Under the pieces are notes generated by a model, which was given only the letters and a program-made list of their open reading frames with translations, was not told the DNA's origin and did no database searches. The translations under genes and the position numbers were made by a program. 64,000 nt of DNA from Ctena decussata. Taxonomy: Eukaryota; Mollusca; Bivalvia; Lucinida; Lucinidae. The first letter of the stretch is position 1. Each line of letters begins with the position of its first letter. The stretch lies in assembly GCA_963989385.1 (NCBI GenBank), contig OZ022498.1:102161298-102225297 (forward strand), read 5' to 3'. Below, in pieces: positions 54,401-64,000 of this stretch.

Positions 54401-55618
54401 GCACGCTACGCTACGTACGTACGTACGGACAGCGGTGATACCATATGCCCCCCATCCCCCCATTTTTAATGGCGGGGGCATAAAAAAGAGTTATAGTGTT
54501 TGTCCCATGCACATCAACGAAATATATTGGGTGTTTTAAATTTGTGCCAACTTTTATGAAAATACCTTCAACCCATTAGAGTTTAGGTTCTTGTTCTCAA
54601 CATATTGCCTGATGATGCTTCTAATTTCTACCTCATTTCATGAAAATACATTCAACTGTTTGCACACCGTATCCATCCGAAGAAGTTTCGTCTAAAAGTA
54701 AGAATGGAGGTACGTATCTTTTCTCAGATTGGCACATGGTTGTACTAAAGTGCTTAACATGCTTAACATATCTTACAAGATTTGAAAATAGCGGACACAA
54801 TTTTCATATTAACCCATTATTGCCTAGCGTCTCAAAAATGGGATATAGGCAAACAGTGCAGACCCAGATCAGACGCCGCAAACGCGCCGTCTGATCAAGG
54901 TCTACACTTTTGGAAACCATTTTTCCATACAAAATGAAGTCGAAAAAGGGCCATAACTCCCACAATAATAGACGGATTTTACCCAACATCAAACTTGACC
55001 TGTATTTTATGATTATATACCTGTGTATGAAATATGAATTCAATACACCAATGCTTTCAAAAAATATTGAACGGAAACCATTTTGTCCGGGACGTATGTA
55101 AGTACGCTACGCTACGTACGTACGTATGTACGGACAGCGGTGATTCTATATGCCCCCCCCCCCCCATCCCCCCATTTTTAATGGCGGGGGCATAAAAAGA
55201 GTTATAGTGTTTGTCTCATGCACATCACCGATGTATCGGATGTTTTAAATTTTTGCCAACTTTTATGAAAATACCTTCAACCCATTAGAGTTTAGGTTCT
55301 TGTTCTTAACATATTGCCTGATGATGCTTCTAATTTCTACCTCATTTCATGAAAATACATTCAACTGTTTGCACACCGTATCCATACTAAGAAGTTTCGT
55401 CTAAAAGTAAGAATGGAGGTACGTATCTTTTCTCAGATTGGCACATGGTTGTACTAAAGTGCTTAACATGTTTAACATATCTTAAAAGGTTTGAAAATAG
55501 CGGACACAATTTTCATATTAACCCATTATTGCCTAGCGCCCCAAAATGGGATATGGGCAAACAGTGCAGACCCAGATCAGACGCCGCAAACGCGCCGTCT
55601 GATCAGGGTCTACACTTT
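54216..55618 (+). repeat. Direct tandem duplication of about 700 bp
   Basis: The blocks 54216-54911 and 54912-55618 match throughout: CGTCCGGGACGTA, CATATGCCCCCC, CCATTTTTAATGGCGGGGGC, GTTATAGTGTTTGTC, CCTGATGATGCTTCTAATTT, TGGCACATGGTTGTACTAAA and the MITE-2 core. They differ by only a few percent by eye, so the duplication is recent. In the first copy the MITE-2 is cut exactly at the junction (CTACACTTTTGGAAACC). Confidence 0.85.
54809..54911. mobile_element. MITE-2, truncated by the duplication junction
   Basis: TTAACCCATTATTGCCTAGC, GGCAAACAGTGCAGACCCAG, ATCAGACGCCGCAAACGCGC and CGTCTGATCAAGGTCTACAC. The right part present at 55618-55744 is missing here. Confidence 0.85.
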
Positions 55619-55744
55619 TTGCATGCGACAAATGGGTATTTTTCCTCGAAAGAAAACAATAAACTAAACCTGACATCCCTTAAATGACAAATGGACTCGT
55701 CCAATATATACAGATAGAAGATTCCACTAGGCATTAATGGGTTA
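55518..55744. mobile_element. MITE-2, complete copy
   Basis: The left TTAACCCATTATTGCCTAG and right CTAGGCATTAATGGGTTA are inverted ends. The core CAGACGCCGCAAACGCGCCG, TCTGATCAGGGTCTACAC forms a hairpin. No ORF. Confidence 0.88.
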
Positions 55745-56519
55745 CTATAACAGTTCTTGTTCTCTTCGCATGTTGTGGTGATATTTTATAATATGTCTAC
55801 CAAGTTTCCTGAGAATATCTTCAAAGGGTAGAGAAGCTGACAATATTTCCATACTAAAATTGCAAAGGGGCATAAGTCCGTCGAAAATGAAAGTGGAGTT
55901 TTGCATATTGTCTGGTAATTTGCTTTATATTTGTACTAAGTTTCCTGAAAATACTTGGTATTAAAGTTATGGAATGGACACGATTGTGACGGACAGACAG
56001 GCGGACGGACATGCGGACAGGCAAAACGATGGCTCCCTGCAAGAGAGTGGGGGAGGCATTATTCATTGCATAGTTCTGTACACTGTATTCAAGAGGCACA
56101 GATGAATACGGGTACCCCCATTTTCAAAATTAATATAAATTAGCATTGAGTGGTTGGGTAAGTTTTAACATTTTGACTCAAGCGACCACTGTGATGCACG
56201 AAGAGTGTTCATTTTTGCATAATTCTGTTTCTTCAGCCATTTGCTTTAGTTGAAGTGATTTTGTTCACGTAAAAAGGGTATTCCAAAACGTGATTTTTCA
56301 CAAATCGTGATGAAATGCTGAATTTTGTGAATTTTAAAAATGGGGGTGCTTAGTTTAAACTTTATTTGTATAAACATCATACACTTATGTACAGACAATG
56401 GTTAACAGAACATACAAAAGGGATTCAGAAGGAAGTCTGTCGACTTTTGTAAATTTGTATCCCTAGAAATGAGTTCGTGCTTAAACCTATGACACACAGC
56501 ATGTTTAGACAAAGTATAA
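55745..56519. other. Non-coding stretch
   Basis: GGACAGACAGGCGGACGGAC lies near 55993, the kind of GACGGAC tract that often ends these bivalve-like repeats. No gene or other repeat is supported. Confidence 0.4.
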
Positions 56520-57299
56520 AGGCCCTGTCACACTACAACGTTTCAGACAACGTATGCCAACGTATGAAAAATTTATCCAATACGCTGGCATACGCTGGAG
56601 ATAAATTAAAACATCAAACAGCAGCCGGTTTTGGAACGCACACATAGCGTACTGAAACGTATAAATAACTTATTCACAACTTATCCCTAGCGTATACATA
56701 ACTTATACAAGCGTATAACAGCGTGTTCTCAGCGTATCTGTAGCGTTCTTGTCTTATGCCGAACGCATGCACAACGTTAGTCTAACTTACGCCGACCTTA
56801 TGTATGGCGTGTTGGAGCGTGCTTCGACGATCAGATGTAAAGCGACGGCTCTCTGCAACACTTGTTATTGTAGTGGATGTTAATCGATGGATATGCCTAA
56901 AGAACGAAAATTAGAGAACTTTGCAGGTAGTAGCTGACCACCTGCATGCCTACCGTCGTCACTATCATCACCCGACTGCCGTACCTACGATGGTAGCCAA
57001 CCTCCCTCTCGCGGCGCAGACTCCAATGCCTCTTTCGTGGTATCCGTGGCGGCATCTGCAGCAGCTGTGGTGGCATCTGAAGTATTAATCCCCTCTCAAG
57101 CCCCAAAACGACAAGCAGAAGCGGTCCAAGAAGATTCCTTATTTAAAAGTGATGAATTGCTGATCTGTATCCAATATATATAGCTGAAGCCCAGGTCGCT
57201 GGCGGATATGTTACCCAAATACGCACAGTGCGTTCGTGATACGTTGAATAAGTTTTAAGTTCGTCAGGCATAGGTTGGATACGTCCTGGATACGTTCGG

Positions 57300-57515
57300 T
57301 ATAAGTTACAGGTAAGTTACCTATAAGTTAGAAATAAGTTACGCGTACGCTCCACAGCGGACCTGCTGGCTGCCGACGTATTAGTCCAGGCAAACTAGCA
57401 GTTTTTTTCGGTAAACCCAAAACAAATTGCAACAAAAGCTTTTTTGGCATTTTCATAGAGGACAGGCCTTCACATATGACATAACAAAAGTAGGATGAAA
57501 TCGGAAAATGCAAAA
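57300..57515. repeat. Left inverted-repeat arm of the large element
   Basis: Reverse-complemented, this reads GCATTTTCCGATTTCATCCT (ACTTTTGTTAT), then AAAAAAGCTTTTGTTGCAAT (TTGTTTTGGGTT), CTGGACTAATACGTC and GCGTACGCGTAACTTATTTC. The right arm has GCATTCTCCGATTTTATCCT, AAAAAAGCTTTTGTTGCAAT (TTGTTTTAGGTT), CTGGACTATATGTC and CGTACGCATAACTTACC in the same order. The central 32-base block differs at one position. Confidence 0.85.
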
Positions 57516-57899
57516 CATGTTTTTTTTTGCAGTTTTACAAACACGTATTTACTTGTTTATATGTATTTATAATTTATGTTGTTTTATATACCAACATTAT
57601 TGTTACGAGATTTATTTCTAAGAAACTGTACTGATCTCACCAAAATTGAATCTAAACACCTAAGATAGTGTATTGAGCTTTTTCTTGCTGGACATGAGAC
57701 CATCTAAGTATAAAATTTGGTATTACATTACCCCACCCACTACGTTCTGCGTTACAATTTCAACTGACTTCTTGAAGGACAGTGATGAACTTCAATATAT
57801 GTCATGCAAATTGTTTAGCTTTGCATAAACATGCTACAAATTTGGAACACTGACATTTGAATGCATGATAAGAAAGTATCAAATACACCTCAACATACC

Positions 57900-58325
57900 G
57901 TATTAATCCTAATAAGCACCCCTGCTCTAATTAATGCATCCTGTCTCTTTTCCGAAAGTAATATTGACTTTCATAAATTCCTGTTTGCTTCTTATGATGA
58001 GGTAGCTAGTTGAAATGGGGTCTACTCTTGATGGAAAGAATTTGCTCCTACACCTAAACAAACGGTATGAATCCTAATAAACACCCCTGCTCTAATTAAT
58101 GCCCCTGCCTCTTTAGGGAAAGTAATATTAACTTTCATAAATTCCAGGTTGCTTCTTATGATGAGGTAGTTCGTTGAAATAGGGTCTACTCCAAAAGTAA
58201 AGAATTAGCCCCTATGGCAGCAAATTCCTTGGAGCAAATTCCTTCCTTTAAGAGTTGCCCACTGCTGAGAAGGGAGGCAAGGAAAGAGTAGAGTTGCTTC
58301 ACCTGAAAGTATACCCATTTACCTT
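57900..58325 (+). repeat. Repeat family A, tandem pair of about 170 bp
   Basis: AATCCTAATAAGCACCCCTG, CTCTAATTAATGC, GAAAGTAATATTGACTTTCA, TAAATTCC, GCTTCTTATGATGAGGTAG and GGGTCTACTC occur at 57905 and again at 58072. The second copy continues with GCAAATTCCTTCCTTTAAGA, GAGAAGGGAGG and CACCTGAAAGTATACCCATT, the part shared with 1-120 and 33650-33780. Confidence 0.8.
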
Positions 58326-58399
58326 AGTACTGTTTATTAGAGATATGTTGCAGCGCCCCTGGGGCGTTTAATAGTATTAATACAGTACTCATAAACAGC

Positions 58400-58405
58400 T
58401 TTATT
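58400..58405 (-). promoter_or_regulatory. Candidate polyadenylation signal for the nuclease gene
   Basis: TTTATT on the plus strand is AATAAA on the minus strand, about 145 bases past the TAA stop at 58549-58551. A second one (about 58329) lies a further 70 bases on. Either would serve; this is inference from position only. Confidence 0.4.
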
Positions 58406-58548
58406 AGAATTCTTTTTTCACATTCACAGTAAAAATGACTTAAAATATCAGCTTGATGATTTTGGTTAGAACTAAACCAATATCAACAAGTTGATATTCA
58501 AAGTCAGTTATACTGCCACATGCTGTCTTCCCTTAGTGAAGATTGATT

Positions 58549-61500
58549 TTAGTCACTGTCTTCATCAACGTTCATATTGTCCATCTGTACAGAATTCAGA
58601 CAACTGATTCCTCTGCATTCACCACACATTTGTGAGCATGTAAGGCCATGTTTACGACAAGTGCAATGAGAAGTTTTACAAGAGGCTTTACATTTACACC
58701 TAACAACTTTAAGTAATCTGTCTGGAGCAGGAGGTTTGTCAGTATGTACTGCCAGTAGTCTGTTGCCTTTCACGGCCCAACCCCAGTTTTCTGCAAGTAG
58801 GTCATTTCCCTTCCATACTTGAACTTGATGATATGTTCTGAGAGAATGATATCTTGTTGCTGCAGATGTTGGTGGTAAGTTTTCAGGCTTTACAAATTTG
58901 ACGCTACCTGCTACTTTCTGATAAAATGTGTTCAGTCTTAGGGAATCAAGCTTCCCTTCTGGGTTTCCACCAAACAGAATAATCATAGCTTTCTCTCCAT
59001 ACCCAATTATGTCATCCACTGAAATATGTTCATCGTTAGTGAAAACAGAGGCACATTCACGAAAAGTCTTATCTTTTAGATATTTCTTGAGTGCCAGTCC
59101 TTTTCCAAGACCAAATACACTAGACGTTGTGTCACAACCAAGAACTGCATGCACAAACAATAAATCTTTACTGAGGTCATTACCAAGTTTCAGTTTTGTT
59201 TCCTTAATATTCCACACCCTGGCAGCTGTCTTCATATTTCTTCTTTGTTCAGATTTAAAGTAGATGTCATTAGCATTTACAGAGGCATAATGGCACAGCA
59301 GTATAAGGAGATCAGTGTCTTCTCCAATTAAAACTGTTGGATCTCTCTCAGCACTTTCTACAGCTGTTTTGACTATTAGCAGGTCTGCATCGCCCTCAGC
59401 TTGTAGGGCTTTGATGCCATTTTCTGAAAACTTATCTCTCAAGTTACTGATGAACTTTTGTTTGTTCTGTGGATTTGCCAGGAACATATCTTTTTTCATA
59501 TCTAGTGTCATATCACTTGAAAAATTGATAGTGTTTCCTGCCTGGCCCTTACTACGCCTAATATGAGCTGTGTCCTTTGTTGATGGCATTTCACTGTAAC
59601 CATCAAACACAACAACAGATCTAGAACCGTATTTCTGCGTGACATATTTCAGATAGAGATCATAGATATTATTATAACTTAAACCACGAGGCCATGGAAT
59701 GCGCTGAAGTAAGGCACCACCATCTAACACATACTTGCAATTACTCTGTATGGTAGCAGATACAAGGCTAAACTGGTTCCATAAAGCAGTTGTTAGCTGT
59801 GGTTTATTTGCTGCTCTCATTAAGGTGTCATTCCCAAATAGTGATGGTGGGTGAGTGGCTAGTTCATAAGTGAATAAATCTTCAAGTTCCTCAGGTGCTG
59901 TGTTTCCTCTTGCAGCTGAAATTAATCTTTGAAAAAGCAGCTGAGGATCAACAGTCACCATATCATTGTCAATTTTCAACTGTGTTTTACAGTTAAGTGT
60001 GACAGCTTGTGCCTTCTTCTTAAACACAAAAGCCTCTACATGTTTGCCTATCATCTCTTTCAGAATGCTTTCTCCAACTTCTCTGGAATTGTCTACATTT
60101 ACAGTTTCATCTGCAGTTACTCCAGACGCAATACTTCGCAGTGATGGATCACCATCAAATGGGTTCCTTGCTTCAAGGAACACTGCCAGTGCTTTCATAT
60201 CACTGTTGTCTCTAGAAATTCTTGCTTTTGTGCTGTCTTTATGTTGCTCACTAGACATATAGGTAGTGCTACTGAATTCTTCCATTGCTTGGCTTACATC
60301 AGCGCAGGCTGGCATTGATAACAGCCAGACAGTTCTTTGTGATTCCGACATACCCCTGCCCCGAGTTAGACCACCAGACGTTTTAAGGCTTCTCATTAGC
60401 ATTTGTTCAATTATCAGATCTGTGGATAGCCCTGCCCAATGTCTATCACTTCTTCTTATTACATGATACCCCTCTTGGAACAGCTTGTAAACATTGGGGT
60501 TAGATGTTGATAGCTTTTCCATGGTCTGTAAATAGATGTAGGCACTTTTGGCATAAAGATTATGTCCTGATGCGGCAAAGAATGGGAGCATTCTTGACAT
60601 AGACTCTAAATGAAGTTTCCAATTCCCCACTCGTTCTGCCTTTATGAACTGTTTAAGAATAGTGATCATATCTAGATACATAAGCCATAACTTAGCTGTT
60701 CTTGACCTTGCTAAACTTATCTTAGTTTGATTAAGTGTGTCTTGTAATCTTTCAAACACACTATTAGAGCATGCTGATTCTAAATTAATATCTTCATTTA
60801 TCAAGTTGTTAAAAACTTCTTCCAATAATTTTAGATCTGCAGTTGTCTGAATATCTATTTGCTCAGTCTCCATTTCAGTTTCAGTTGCAATCAGTCTGTC
60901 AAGAACCTCTGGCAACAACTCTAGGCTATTGTCATTATTCTCCTCTTCAGTTGACTGTTCCTCATGAAGCTCCATATCCCCAGAGGCCAGGCTATTTATT
61001 ACACTTTCGGCTGTCACTGGTTCTGCAACATTATCAAATATTGAAACTACTTTATCTGATATTGATCTGATGGCTGTCTGCTCTAAAACTTCTTCAACAG
61101 AATATTCAACCACACTTCTTTCGACTACTTGTACAATATTGTTATCTGTTTCCTTTGATGTGTCTGTTACTTTTTCAGTTAAACAATATTCCATTATCTC
61201 TGGAGGTTCTGTAGTCTGCTCTTGAACTGGAATTTCTCTTTCTTTAATCCCTTGGTCTTTAAATGGGAGTGGCACTTTGAATATTTTAGAAAGAATAATT
61301 GCATATAATACAGCCTCTATTAAAATGTGTCCACGAATTGCTCTTGATATTGCCTTACCAGTTAGAATGTGAGCTACTGCTGTATTAGCATATATCACTT
61401 CCAAGAGTTCTTGCAATCCGGATCCACCCATTAAATGTCCAACTGCACCCAGAAAACTCATTTCTGTATGAAGCCCTCCTAACCTTAAGATTATATCCTT

Positions 61501-63323
61501 GATGGCTGTATTAGAGCTTTCACATTGTTGTATCTCGAATGACTTCCACCATAGTGGCTGGTCAAATGTGAGAATTGGGGTAAACTTATACCGTTTTGCT
61601 TGCTCACTGACAAAACACATTGTTGAGTAAATACAAATCTCATCATTTGATTTTAAGTCTATCATTGGCATGAAAAACACAGATGAAACCCCTGGGTGTG
61701 ATCCTTGACTTACCATCTGCATGTAACCATTCCAAGAAGGCCTCTCGGGTTGCAGAAGCCATGACGTTTTCCACAGCAAGTCCGCATTTGCTGTGGCATC
61801 CTCAGTTGAAAAGTCTGGTAATTTATCATATTTCAGTAACGATAAAACACCTTCCCTTGGCATAAAGAAAGCAATATTTATCTTGCCTACAGAGGCAATG
61901 TCCTCGGCTGTTACATTTACTCTTGGAACAGTTTTACATATTTCAGTTTGTAGGGTTACAGTAGCTATTATACCCATGCCATGAAACGTGTTAAATCCAT
62001 CAAGAGTTCTCAAATTATGATCAACATTATCAGCTATGTGTTGAACAAACATACCAGGCTTTAAACCAGGAATATCAGTTCCTAAATTAACCGCTGCACT
62101 TCTTTCATATCTCTGAATCTCAGAATATGAAGAGCAAAAACCTAGTTGATTGAGTGTATCAACCAGAAATCTAGATCCAAACTGTCTGTGCATTTGCACG
62201 CCCAGACCCAGTTGAAGAGGTGTGTTGAGTATTCTTGGCCTGGCTGACTGCATAATCGCTTGTCCAATAGAGGCAACTTTTGTATCAGAACCTTTACCAA
62301 CAAAAACATTTTGTAGGAACACTTTCAACGTTCCAGGAAGAAATGTCAGATTTTCCTCTACTGATCTATCTCGTCACTTGATGGGTAAGTAGAAGAATCT
62401 GCGCTTATTGATTTTATGTCATTCTTTATTAGCTTTGCAGCTGTTTCTATAAGTCTGTATTTTTCAGATTCTGAGTCTTCCTTCTTCGGTGATTCGTAAA
62501 ACTGATGGAGTATTACTGAAGCATTTGATCTGAAAGTCACTACATTTGATTTACCATCAAGTTCTGTTACTATGATTCTGTCTCTGAAATGATCAGTTAG
62601 GCGTTTTTTCATATATGGGAAACTATACGGTTCAAACTCTGTGCCATCCAGATAGTCATTCATTCTATCAATGAGATAATTTATAGTTATCTGCTCTTCA
62701 TCGTTTTCTTCTAAATAACGGGTTACTCGCAAAAATGCACATTCTCTATCTGTAACTGATGGTCTTCCACGCTTGCTTGGATTTGAGTTGTCTTCTTCTC
62801 TGAAATCTCTATAGAGTATAGGTATCTGTTTGAAGGTTCTAAAATTTGTACTACACTGTCTATGATAGACTGCATCAGATGCTGGAAGATCCTGGGAGTA
62901 TTCCAGCCTAGCCATGACTGCATGAGACCAAGAATCATTTCTCTGTGTACAAATATCCTGTATGGTGCTCTTGATTTCTAATGTTCTTACACTAGAGACT
63001 TGACATTTGTCATGAGGTCGTTTAGACTCTGTTGATTTGCCACAGAAAATACAGTCTGTTTGGAAGTCAAATGTAGTTTCTGAACGCAACAGACGCTTTG
63101 GTGTTGCAGCAGCTTCTCCTTCCTTTCTTAAAAACAAATCAATGCTCTTAGTATTCGTATACTCAAGTCTACAGGATTTGTGTACAACTAGGCCAGGTTT
63201 AGCTTCTATTTCATCCCCGAGCAGTTTACTGGCTTGATTAATACTATCAGCTCCTTTCTGTCGAAGTGTTACGGTCTCTCCACCTTCTTCTATATCATTA
63301 TTACACAAAATACACCTGTCCAT
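58549..63323 (-). CDS. Transposon-borne PIN/FEN1-like nuclease with zinc modules and CXC domain (one frameshift)
   Basis: Two minus-strand frames form one protein. The first (63323-62358, ATG start) has 321 residues with two Cys/His modules: C4-C7 with H48-C51 (VVHKSCRLEYTN), and C91-C94 (CIFCGK) with H154-C157 (VYHRQCSTNF). The second has no ATG at its start; it is open from 62373 and reads RDRSVEENLTFLPGTLKVFL onwards to TAA at 58549. Counted from the TTG at 62328 it has 1259 residues: a conserved N-terminal block (VASIGQAIMQSARPRI), an acidic linker (360-500), then a PIN/FEN1 fold with VLDGG (867-871), VVFDGYSEMPSTK (906-918), QAEGDADLLIVKTA (976-989), GEDTDLLILL (1002-1011) and an H3TH-like LGCDTTSSVFGLGKGLAL (1063-1080). 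It ends in a CXC-type domain (CKCKASCKTSHCTC, 1211-1224). A single one-base shift near 62358-62373 separates the frames. The product would be a structure-specific DNA nuclease, probably DNA-binding and nuclear; its role in mobility is inference. No introns are apparent. Confidence 0.75.
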
Positions 63324-63810
63324 TCTGATTTTCTATAAGTAGCTTGGATGTGTCTCTCAGCTAGATTTTGTTAAAGTGAAACAGTGTTGTTATCATTGAC
63401 TGGGATTACTCGTTTGTCCATGTTATCTGAAAAATTGAGAAAAATATTAAGAAACATGATATGACCTCTGTATCCAGCCTATACTCTGAAAATAGAGCTA
63501 CACACACTGATTCTTCTCAGATATACTCACTGAAGCTGTAACAGTAAAATTATCGTAGAAAAATTGTGAACTCAAATTTTGCATTGGTGGGTGGGGTAAC
63601 CCAGTATTAATATATATAATACAATAGACCTGTTAAGCATATCAACAAGGCTGATGATGTGGACTACAGCCATAAGATAAAGCTGTTTTATGAACAACTT
63701 CTGTGGACTAAATCACATTAGAACTGATGTGTAGAAGCAGTTATGACAACAACAGTACGTTTACGGTGTTTTAAATCCTTTGAAAACAAAAATAAGCAAA
63801 AAAACAATTT
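63324..63810. other. Upstream region of the nuclease gene
   Basis: About 490 bp lie between the start codon and the right inverted-repeat arm. They should hold the promoter and 5' leader of the minus-strand gene. I cannot identify a TATA box or initiator with confidence. A splice donor/acceptor pair cannot be excluded. Confidence 0.35.
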
Positions 63811-64000
63811 TCGCATTCTCCGATTTTATCCTACTTTTAGTATGTTATAGACCTAGGTCTAGGGAAGTTAAAACTGCAAAAAAAGCTTTTGTTGCAATTT
63901 GTTTTAGGTTCTCCCACTATTTGACTGGACTATATGTCAATGTATGATTAACTTACAAGTTGCGTGCATGAACGTACGCATAACTTACCTGTTGCGTACA
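63811..64000. repeat. Right inverted-repeat arm of the large element, cut by the window edge
   Basis: This matches the reverse complement of 57300-57515 block by block. It ends in AACGTACGCATAACTTACCT GTTGCGTACA, the same ACGTA/AACTTA word style as the left arm. Confidence 0.85.

What the first reader, a model, noticed from the sequence alone, without database searches (positions are those of the whole stretch)
56520..64000. A possible new transposon type: long inverted repeats around a FEN1/PIN-like nuclease gene, with no DDE transposase
Seen: inverted arms at 57300-57515 and 63811-64000 (one block 31 of 32 identical) enclose a single 4.8-kb minus-strand gene. Its C-terminal third has the acidic residues and helix-hairpin element of the FEN1/XPG nuclease fold, plus a CXC domain. 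Known: cut-and-paste transposons normally encode DDE or HUH/tyrosine recombinases; FEN1-type enzymes are host repair nucleases. Inference: either this nuclease drives or assists mobility, or the element depends on a transposase in trans and carries the nuclease as cargo. I believe related uncharacterised proteins are multicopy in other invertebrates, but that is recollection and needs a search.
Basis: partly seen in the sequence, partly recalled or inferred. Interest (0 to 1): 0.88.

Follow-up and report, generated by a model that had tools for sequence, protein, structure and literature searches.

The report
AcademX-type transposon nested in a MITE

Summary
The inverted arms, the long minus-strand gene, the FEN1/XPG-like domain and the CXC-like tail are real; the boundaries and "no DDE transposase" are not. 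The element is 57382-63932 (6,551 bp; 5'-TAGTCCAG...CTGGACTA-3'; imperfect ~140-bp inverted repeats). It lies in a Harbinger-like MITE (56520-57381 plus 63936-64237); five other MITE loci show the empty site with a single TAT, so the duplication is TAT. Seven of nine gene-bearing loci examined, and both of two complete non-coding derivatives, have exact 3-bp duplications. Relatives (373 hits; named ones include corals, molluscs, a sea spider) encode one ~1,500-aa protein; the window copy is split by a frameshift. A model of the transposase part aligns best with P-element, Hermes and RAG1 recombinases, with invariant candidates D100 or D103, D256, E641; the C-terminal part matches EXO1/FEN1/XPG with conserved catalytic acids. 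A nuclease-bearing DDE element with 3-4 bp duplications is what print calls AcademX. New member of a known kind. The nuclease's role is open: I infer that it works on the 5' (non-transferred) strand, either cutting it during transposition (35%) or in later repair (40%).

The parts
57382..63932 (-). Whole transposon (6,551 bp), AcademX-type; gene on the minus strand
   Evidence: Ends shared with copies on C5 (98.9% and 95.3% over its two aligned stretches) and C18 (95.0% and 94.4%); terminal motifs and TSDs; empty site in five outer-MITE loci; length
57379..57381 (.). Left target-site duplication TAT
   Evidence: uninterrupted MITE copies read GCCGACG-TAT-GTCAACG, window reads GCCGACG-TAT-[element]-TAT-GTCAATG
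63933..63935 (.). Right target-site duplication TAT
57382..57526 (+). Left terminal inverted repeat (imperfect; starts TAGTCCAGGCAAACT)
   Evidence: terminal pattern occurs 416 times in the genome against 0 for the reversed control
63798..63932 (-). Right terminal inverted repeat (read from the end: TAGTCCAGTCAAAT)
62358..63323 (-). ORF1, 321 aa: N-terminal Cys/His-rich (probable zinc-binding) part of the transposase protein, separated from ORF2 by a frameshift in this copy
   Evidence: relatives carry it in one frame with ORF2
58549..62328 (-). ORF2, 1259 aa: DDE transposase + FEN1/XPG-like nuclease + CXC-like tail
61429..62058 (-). RNase H-like catalytic core, ORF2 residues 91-300 (strands 94-104, 115-125, 215-223, 252-255, 280-283; D100/D103 and D256)
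   Evidence: Model mean pLDDT 80.8; alignments to P element, Hermes, RAG1, PFV integrase; D100, D103, D256 in 46 of 46; coordinates
60424..61428 (-). Interruption between the second and the proposed third acid, ORF2 residues 301-635: helical segments around a poorly modelled linker (about 359-486)
   Evidence: Secondary structure and pLDDT; coordinates
60364..60423 (-). Helix carrying the proposed third catalytic acid E641 (ORF2 residues 636-655)
   Evidence: E641 in 46 of 46 rows; the aligned ranges to P element, Hermes and PFV integrase run past this helix (first and last aligned residues only are given)
58792..59808 (-). FEN1/XPG-like nuclease, ORF2 residues 841-1179; acids D869, D909, D980, D982, D1004, D1006, D1066
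58594..58704 (-). CXC-like nine-cysteine tail, ORF2 residues 1209-1245
   Evidence: Cysteines present in 45-46 of 46 rows; two of the 120 listed relatives are named 'Tesmin/TSO1-like CXC domain' by a source; Pfam gave no CXC hit
57884..58214 (.). Two tandem copies of a ~165-bp repeat between gene end and left terminus
   Evidence: window against itself, 167 bp, 86%; period 164, 1.9 copies
56520..57381 (+). Left part of the host element: Harbinger-like MITE (AGGCCCTGTCACAC...), TSD TAA at 56517-56519; not part of the transposon under study
   Evidence: 42 matches at 95-100%, the window itself included; ends and TWA duplications
63936..64000 (+). Right part of the same MITE; it continues outside the window to about 64237

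Best explanation
An Academ-superfamily DNA transposon of the nuclease-bearing (AcademX) lineage. Shown: a 6,551-bp unit with ~140-bp imperfect TIRs, 3-bp target duplications, copies of the same and of two sister families, complete non-coding derivatives with the same ends, and (in relatives) one fused protein = Cys/His-rich N-terminus + DDE transposase (modelled RNase H fold with a helical insertion) + FEN1/XPG nuclease + CXC-like tail. Inferred: the N-terminal and/or CXC-like cysteine modules bind the TIRs; the DDE centre (D100 or D103, D256, E641) nicks the element's 3' ends and joins them to target strands 3 bp apart; the FEN1/XPG centre works on the other (5') strand. I put two versions of that last step close together: it cuts the 5' strand and so removes the donor flank, which after strand transfer is a 5' flap, the usual FEN1/XPG substrate (35%), or it acts only in later repair of flaps and gaps (40%). 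The window copy entered a Harbinger-like MITE and now carries a frameshift.
For: Ends, empty site and TSD; 3-bp TSD in 7 of 9 gene-bearing loci and in 2 of 2 complete non-coding derivatives. In the structural alignment ranks 1-11 of the 50 rows shown are P element, Hermes, ISCth4 or RAG1; D100, D103, D256, E641 46/46. Nuclease fold, catalytic acids 45-46 of 46, EXO1 the top hit of profile searches of the PDB, though weak (E 0.011-0.014); fused in one ORF in relatives, named ones from corals, molluscs and a sea spider. Literature: AcademX carries a nuclease and makes 3-4 bp TSDs (PMC10045372 passage); Academ is a DDD/E superfamily (PMC9587614 passage); bivalves rich in Academ, 100 curated consensuses, mean 5,565 bp (PMC10294476 passages).
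Confidence: 0.9

Rival explanations
1. A new transposon type in which the FEN1/XPG nuclease itself is the recombinase and there is no DDE enzyme.
For: The nuclease catalytic acids are conserved; Pfam finds no transposase domain in the window ORFs; Foldseek alone found no significant match for the first 730 residues of ORF2.
Against: Those residues model as an RNase H-fold recombinase with invariant D/D/E candidates; TIRs with short fixed TSDs are usual for DDE elements (established knowledge).
Confidence: 0.03
2. The nuclease is passenger cargo and plays no part in mobility; mobility comes from the DDE part alone.
For: Most DDE elements have no nuclease (recalled); print describes a sister lineage, AcademH, that carries a helicase instead.
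Against: Fused in the same ORF in relatives and catalytically conserved.
Confidence: 0.12
3. Same element, but the nuclease acts only after integration or excision, on gaps, hairpins or flaps at donor or target, in place of host FEN1/EXO1/GEN1.
For: Closest folds are repair nucleases EXO1, FEN1, XPG, GEN1; P, hAT and RAG-like transposases make the double-strand break themselves (established knowledge).
Against: None specific; not separable from the 5'-strand cutting step by sequence alone.
Confidence: 0.4
4. A single large element 56520-64237 with long TIRs.
For: The outer ends are themselves inverted and flanked by TAA.
Against: The outer left part has 41 further matches in the genome; the 5 loci read across the site lack the gene there and have a single TAT; similarity of the C5 and C18 gene copies stops at the inner ends.
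Confidence: 0.01
5. A domesticated single-copy host nuclease gene with chance repeats.
For: Long intact ORFs exist elsewhere in the genome.
Against: At least nine gene-bearing loci in three families, with TIR ends and 3-bp TSDs.
Confidence: 0.01

Closest known systems
AcademX lineage of the Academ superfamily (Kojima 2020, not read; described in PMC10045372, passage)
   Same: DDE transposase plus nuclease; 3-bp TSD; size near the 5.6-kb bivalve Academ mean (PMC10294476 passage)
   Different: No difference established; sequence identity to a named Repbase family could not be measured
AcademH lineage of Academ
   Same: Same superfamily according to print
   Different: Carries a helicase and makes 9-10 bp TSDs (PMC10045372 passage); here nuclease and 3 bp
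P element and hAT (Hermes) transposases, RAG1
   Same: RNase H fold with a long helical insertion before the last catalytic acid (insertion in those proteins recalled)
   Different: TSDs of 8 bp (P, hAT) or 5 bp (Transib/RAG) (recalled); no fused FEN1/XPG domain (recalled)
KolobokE / KolobokP
   Same: Eukaryotic DDE elements that encode a nuclease (PMC9587614 passages)
   Different: Nucleases are PD-D/ExK and His-Me finger, not FEN1/XPG; Kolobok TSD is TTAA (recalled)
Tn7 TnsA/TnsB
   Same: Possible division of labour: a second nuclease for the 5' strand (recalled)
   Different: TnsA is a separate restriction-like enzyme (recalled); the role of the nuclease here is untested
EXO1/FEN1/XPG/GEN1 repair nucleases
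   Same: Fold and catalytic acids
   Different: Host proteins, not fused to a transposase

Membership tests
AcademX (Academ superfamily) | Encodes a DDD/E transposase | tested here: met
   Model aligns with P element, Hermes, ISCth4, RAG1, PFV integrase; D100/D103, D256, E641 in 46 of 46; Foldseek and Pfam alone did not show it
AcademX (Academ superfamily) | Encodes a nuclease (the 'XPG-like' detail is recalled) | tested here: met
   EXO1/FEN1/XPG fold, acids conserved
AcademX (Academ superfamily) | 3- or 4-bp target-site duplication (PMC10045372 passage) | tested here: met
   3 bp in 7 of 9 gene-bearing loci and 2 of 2 non-coding derivatives; empty site TAT
AcademX (Academ superfamily) | Transposase sequence clusters with Repbase Academ entries | not testable with these tools
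   Repbase is not available and Kojima 2020 is not held
AcademH | Helicase and 9-10 bp TSD | tested here: not met
   TSD is 3 bp; no helicase family among the Pfam hits of the two window ORFs and five relatives
FEN1/XPG nuclease superfamily | Seven catalytic acids on the FEN1-type fold | tested here: met
   correspondence to FEN1 D34, D86, E158, E160, D179, D181, D233 assigned by eye from recalled FEN1 numbering
PIF/Harbinger (outer MITE) | TWA target duplication (recalled as the Harbinger mark) | tested here: met
   TAA or TTA at the window MITE and at L044, L045, L046 and L048; L047 holds tandem or nested copies and was not scored
PIF/Harbinger (outer MITE) | Related autonomous element with Harbinger transposase and the same TIR | not tested
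   -

The most novel reading that the evidence does not exclude
The fused FEN1/XPG domain is the dedicated enzyme for the non-transferred (5') strand: a DDE transpososome in which strand transfer and 5'-flap removal are done by two active sites of one polypeptide, a eukaryotic single-chain counterpart of the TnsB/TnsA pair.
Probability: 0.3. Interest if true: 0.55.

Novelty: new member of a known kind. Interest (0 to 1): 0.24.

Why it matters
It corrects the claim of a transposon type without a DDE enzyme, and gives exact ends, an empty site and target duplications for a nuclease-bearing element whose sister families have long intact ORFs in the same genome. That makes the role of the XPG-like domain in AcademX transposition, for which I found no test in the papers searched, open to experiment. 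The nested arrangement also shows how a MITE's own inverted ends can be mistaken for the TIRs of an element inserted into it.

Tried and rejected
Reading 56520-64237 as one element: rejected on the empty site. E289 ('HTEMSF') as third acid: rejected, E in only 25 of 46 rows; E310 in 42 of 46; E565 and D637 are invariant too. E565 lies in the helical insertion of the model, so E641 is preferred by inference. Pfam on the window ORFs gave nothing significant; in five relatives the only hits with E below 0.02 were DUF6589 (best 3.5e-6, 26.4 bits against a cut-off of 27) and XPG_I (0.013 in one protein), besides unrelated-looking families at E 0.03-0.23. NCBIfam in four relatives gave nothing relevant. 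Foldseek for the transposase half gave no significant match; the DDE reading rests on VIA-align and conservation. A search of this genome for a helicase-bearing sister lineage was not achieved. Papers: searches. Only passages were seen, of PMC10045372, PMC10799480, PMC10294476, PMC9587614 and PMC12730594; the last does not mention Academ. No held paper found by these searches was seen to describe the Academ nuclease domain in detail.

My first joining of overlapping loci assumed wrong orientations for C5 and C18 and was replaced; its window-against-window part stands. The 46 rows are 45 proteins picked by hand (mostly long ones) from the 120 listed of 373 hits, plus the window ORF2. The two structure alignments used 71 of the 120 plus a window fragment.
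Full report
Boundaries. The window lies at C1:102161298-102225297 of a 1.66-Gb genome; I did not identify the host species. Copies of the gene on C5 (98.9% and 95.3% identical over two stretches) and C18 (95.0% and 94.4%) lose similarity to the window at 57379-57381. The termini read TAGTCCAG[G/T]CAAA at both ends, with duplicated flanks TAT (window), TAA (C5) and CTT (C18).

Empty site. The sequence 56520-57380 has 42 matches at 95-100% identity, the window included; 40 of 695 candidates were scored, so this is a lower bound. In the five of these loci that I printed across the site the DNA runs GCCGACG-TAT-GTCAACG without the gene; the window reads GCCGACG-TAT-[57382...63932]-TAT-GTCAATG. The element is therefore 6,551 bp with a 3-bp TSD, and the outer 56520-57381 / 63936-64237 is a separate 1,164-bp element. 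That outer element starts AGGCCCTGTCACAC and is flanked by TAA or TTA in the window and in L044, L045, L046 and L048, as expected of a Harbinger-type MITE (recalled mark).

Family. A protein search of the genome gave 59 matches, from 475 candidates of which 37 were scored. I examined the ends of nine gene-bearing loci in three families: window, C5, C18; C17, C8, C16, C9; C3, C15. C17 with C8, C9 and C16, and C3 with C15, are 98-99% identical over their longest stretches, while the two sister families are about 48-53% identical to the window protein over the larger matched stretches. Exact 3-bp TSDs: TAT, TAA, CTT, TTA (C17), ACA (C8), AAA (C16), TTT (C3): 7 of 9. Misses: C15 has CAA/AAA beside a mutated end; in C9 one end was not found. 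More distant relatives (about 27-30% identity) and shorter fragments were not examined for ends. Long intact ORFs exist at C3 (1503 aa), C17 (1450) and C8 (1429).

Non-coding derivatives. The terminal pattern TAGTCCAGGCAAACTNGCNNTTTTTT occurs 416 times exactly against 0 for the reversed control. Five such loci (L004-L008) share the terminus and 74-76% identity over the first ~500 bp with the window element. For two of the five I fetched the other end: C8:18197288-18200708 (3,421 bp, TSD CAT) and C16:2698670-2702136 (3,467 bp, TSD TAT). Both match the window element at both ends (left ~500 bp at 74%, right ~370 bp at 76%) and give no tblastn hit to ORF1 or ORF2 at E 0.01. They look like derivatives mobilised in trans (inference). 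Their interiors hold repeated units (period 154 in L004); the window element has two ~165-bp units at 57884-58214.

Protein. The window has ORFs of 321 and 1259 aa in different frames; relatives encode both in one ~1,500-aa frame. The search gave 373 proteins, 120 listed; named ones come from Porites, Mytilus, Mercenaria, Littorina and Nymphon.

Classification. Passages seen: PMC10045372 says AcademX makes 3-4 bp TSDs and AcademH 9-10 bp, linked to the nuclease and the helicase they encode; PMC9587614 lists Academ among DDD/E superfamilies and describes nucleases of other types in Kolobok; PMC10294476 reports Academ expanded in bivalves, with 100 curated consensuses, mean 5,565 bp. Kojima 2020 itself is not held, and that the AcademX nuclease is XPG-like is my recollection. 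The three AcademX features that I could test are met; direct comparison with Repbase entries was not possible.

Mechanism. Shown: ends, TSD, fold assignments, conservation. Inferred: 3'-end nicking and strand transfer by the DDE centre; TIR binding by the cysteine-rich parts; work of the FEN1/XPG centre on the 5' strand. For that last step I give about 35% to cutting of the 5' strand during transposition (after strand transfer the donor flank is a 5' flap, the substrate of this enzyme class), about 40% to a role only in repair and about 12% to cargo.

Verdict. A real transposon, correctly suspected to combine mobility with a FEN1/XPG nuclease, but of a kind already named; the 'no DDE' claim and the boundaries are wrong.

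Noticed in passing
56520-57381 and 63936-64237 (last part in L010): High-copy Harbinger-like MITE of 1,164 bp, TSD TAA/TTA, ends AGGCCCTGTCACAC; 42 matches at 95-100% identity, the window included. It is the landing site of the studied element.
   Followed up: partly
L004-L008, L062, L063: Elements without similarity to the protein but with the same TAGTCCAG terminus; two read whole (3.4-3.5 kb) with 3-bp TSDs CAT and TAT; 416 such termini in the genome.
   Followed up: partly
57884-58214: Two tandem ~165-bp repeat units downstream of the gene inside the element.
   Followed up: no
L012/L026 (C5:34217895-34218754): The C5 copy carries an internal tandem duplication (matches of 476 bp at 99% with an offset of about 385 bp); the C18 copy lacks the stretch corresponding to window 60197-61460.
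   Followed up: no
55546-55744: Dispersed repeat that recurs beside the C5 and C18 copies and twice downstream of the window element (about 64779-64968 and 68637-68843).
   Followed up: no
L047: Two outer MITEs in close or nested arrangement (two left ends about 890 bp apart, two right ends about 270 bp apart).
   Followed up: no
L038-L040: Distant (about 27-30% identical) relatives of the same protein in this genome, one with an open frame of 1538 aa; ends not determined.
   Followed up: no
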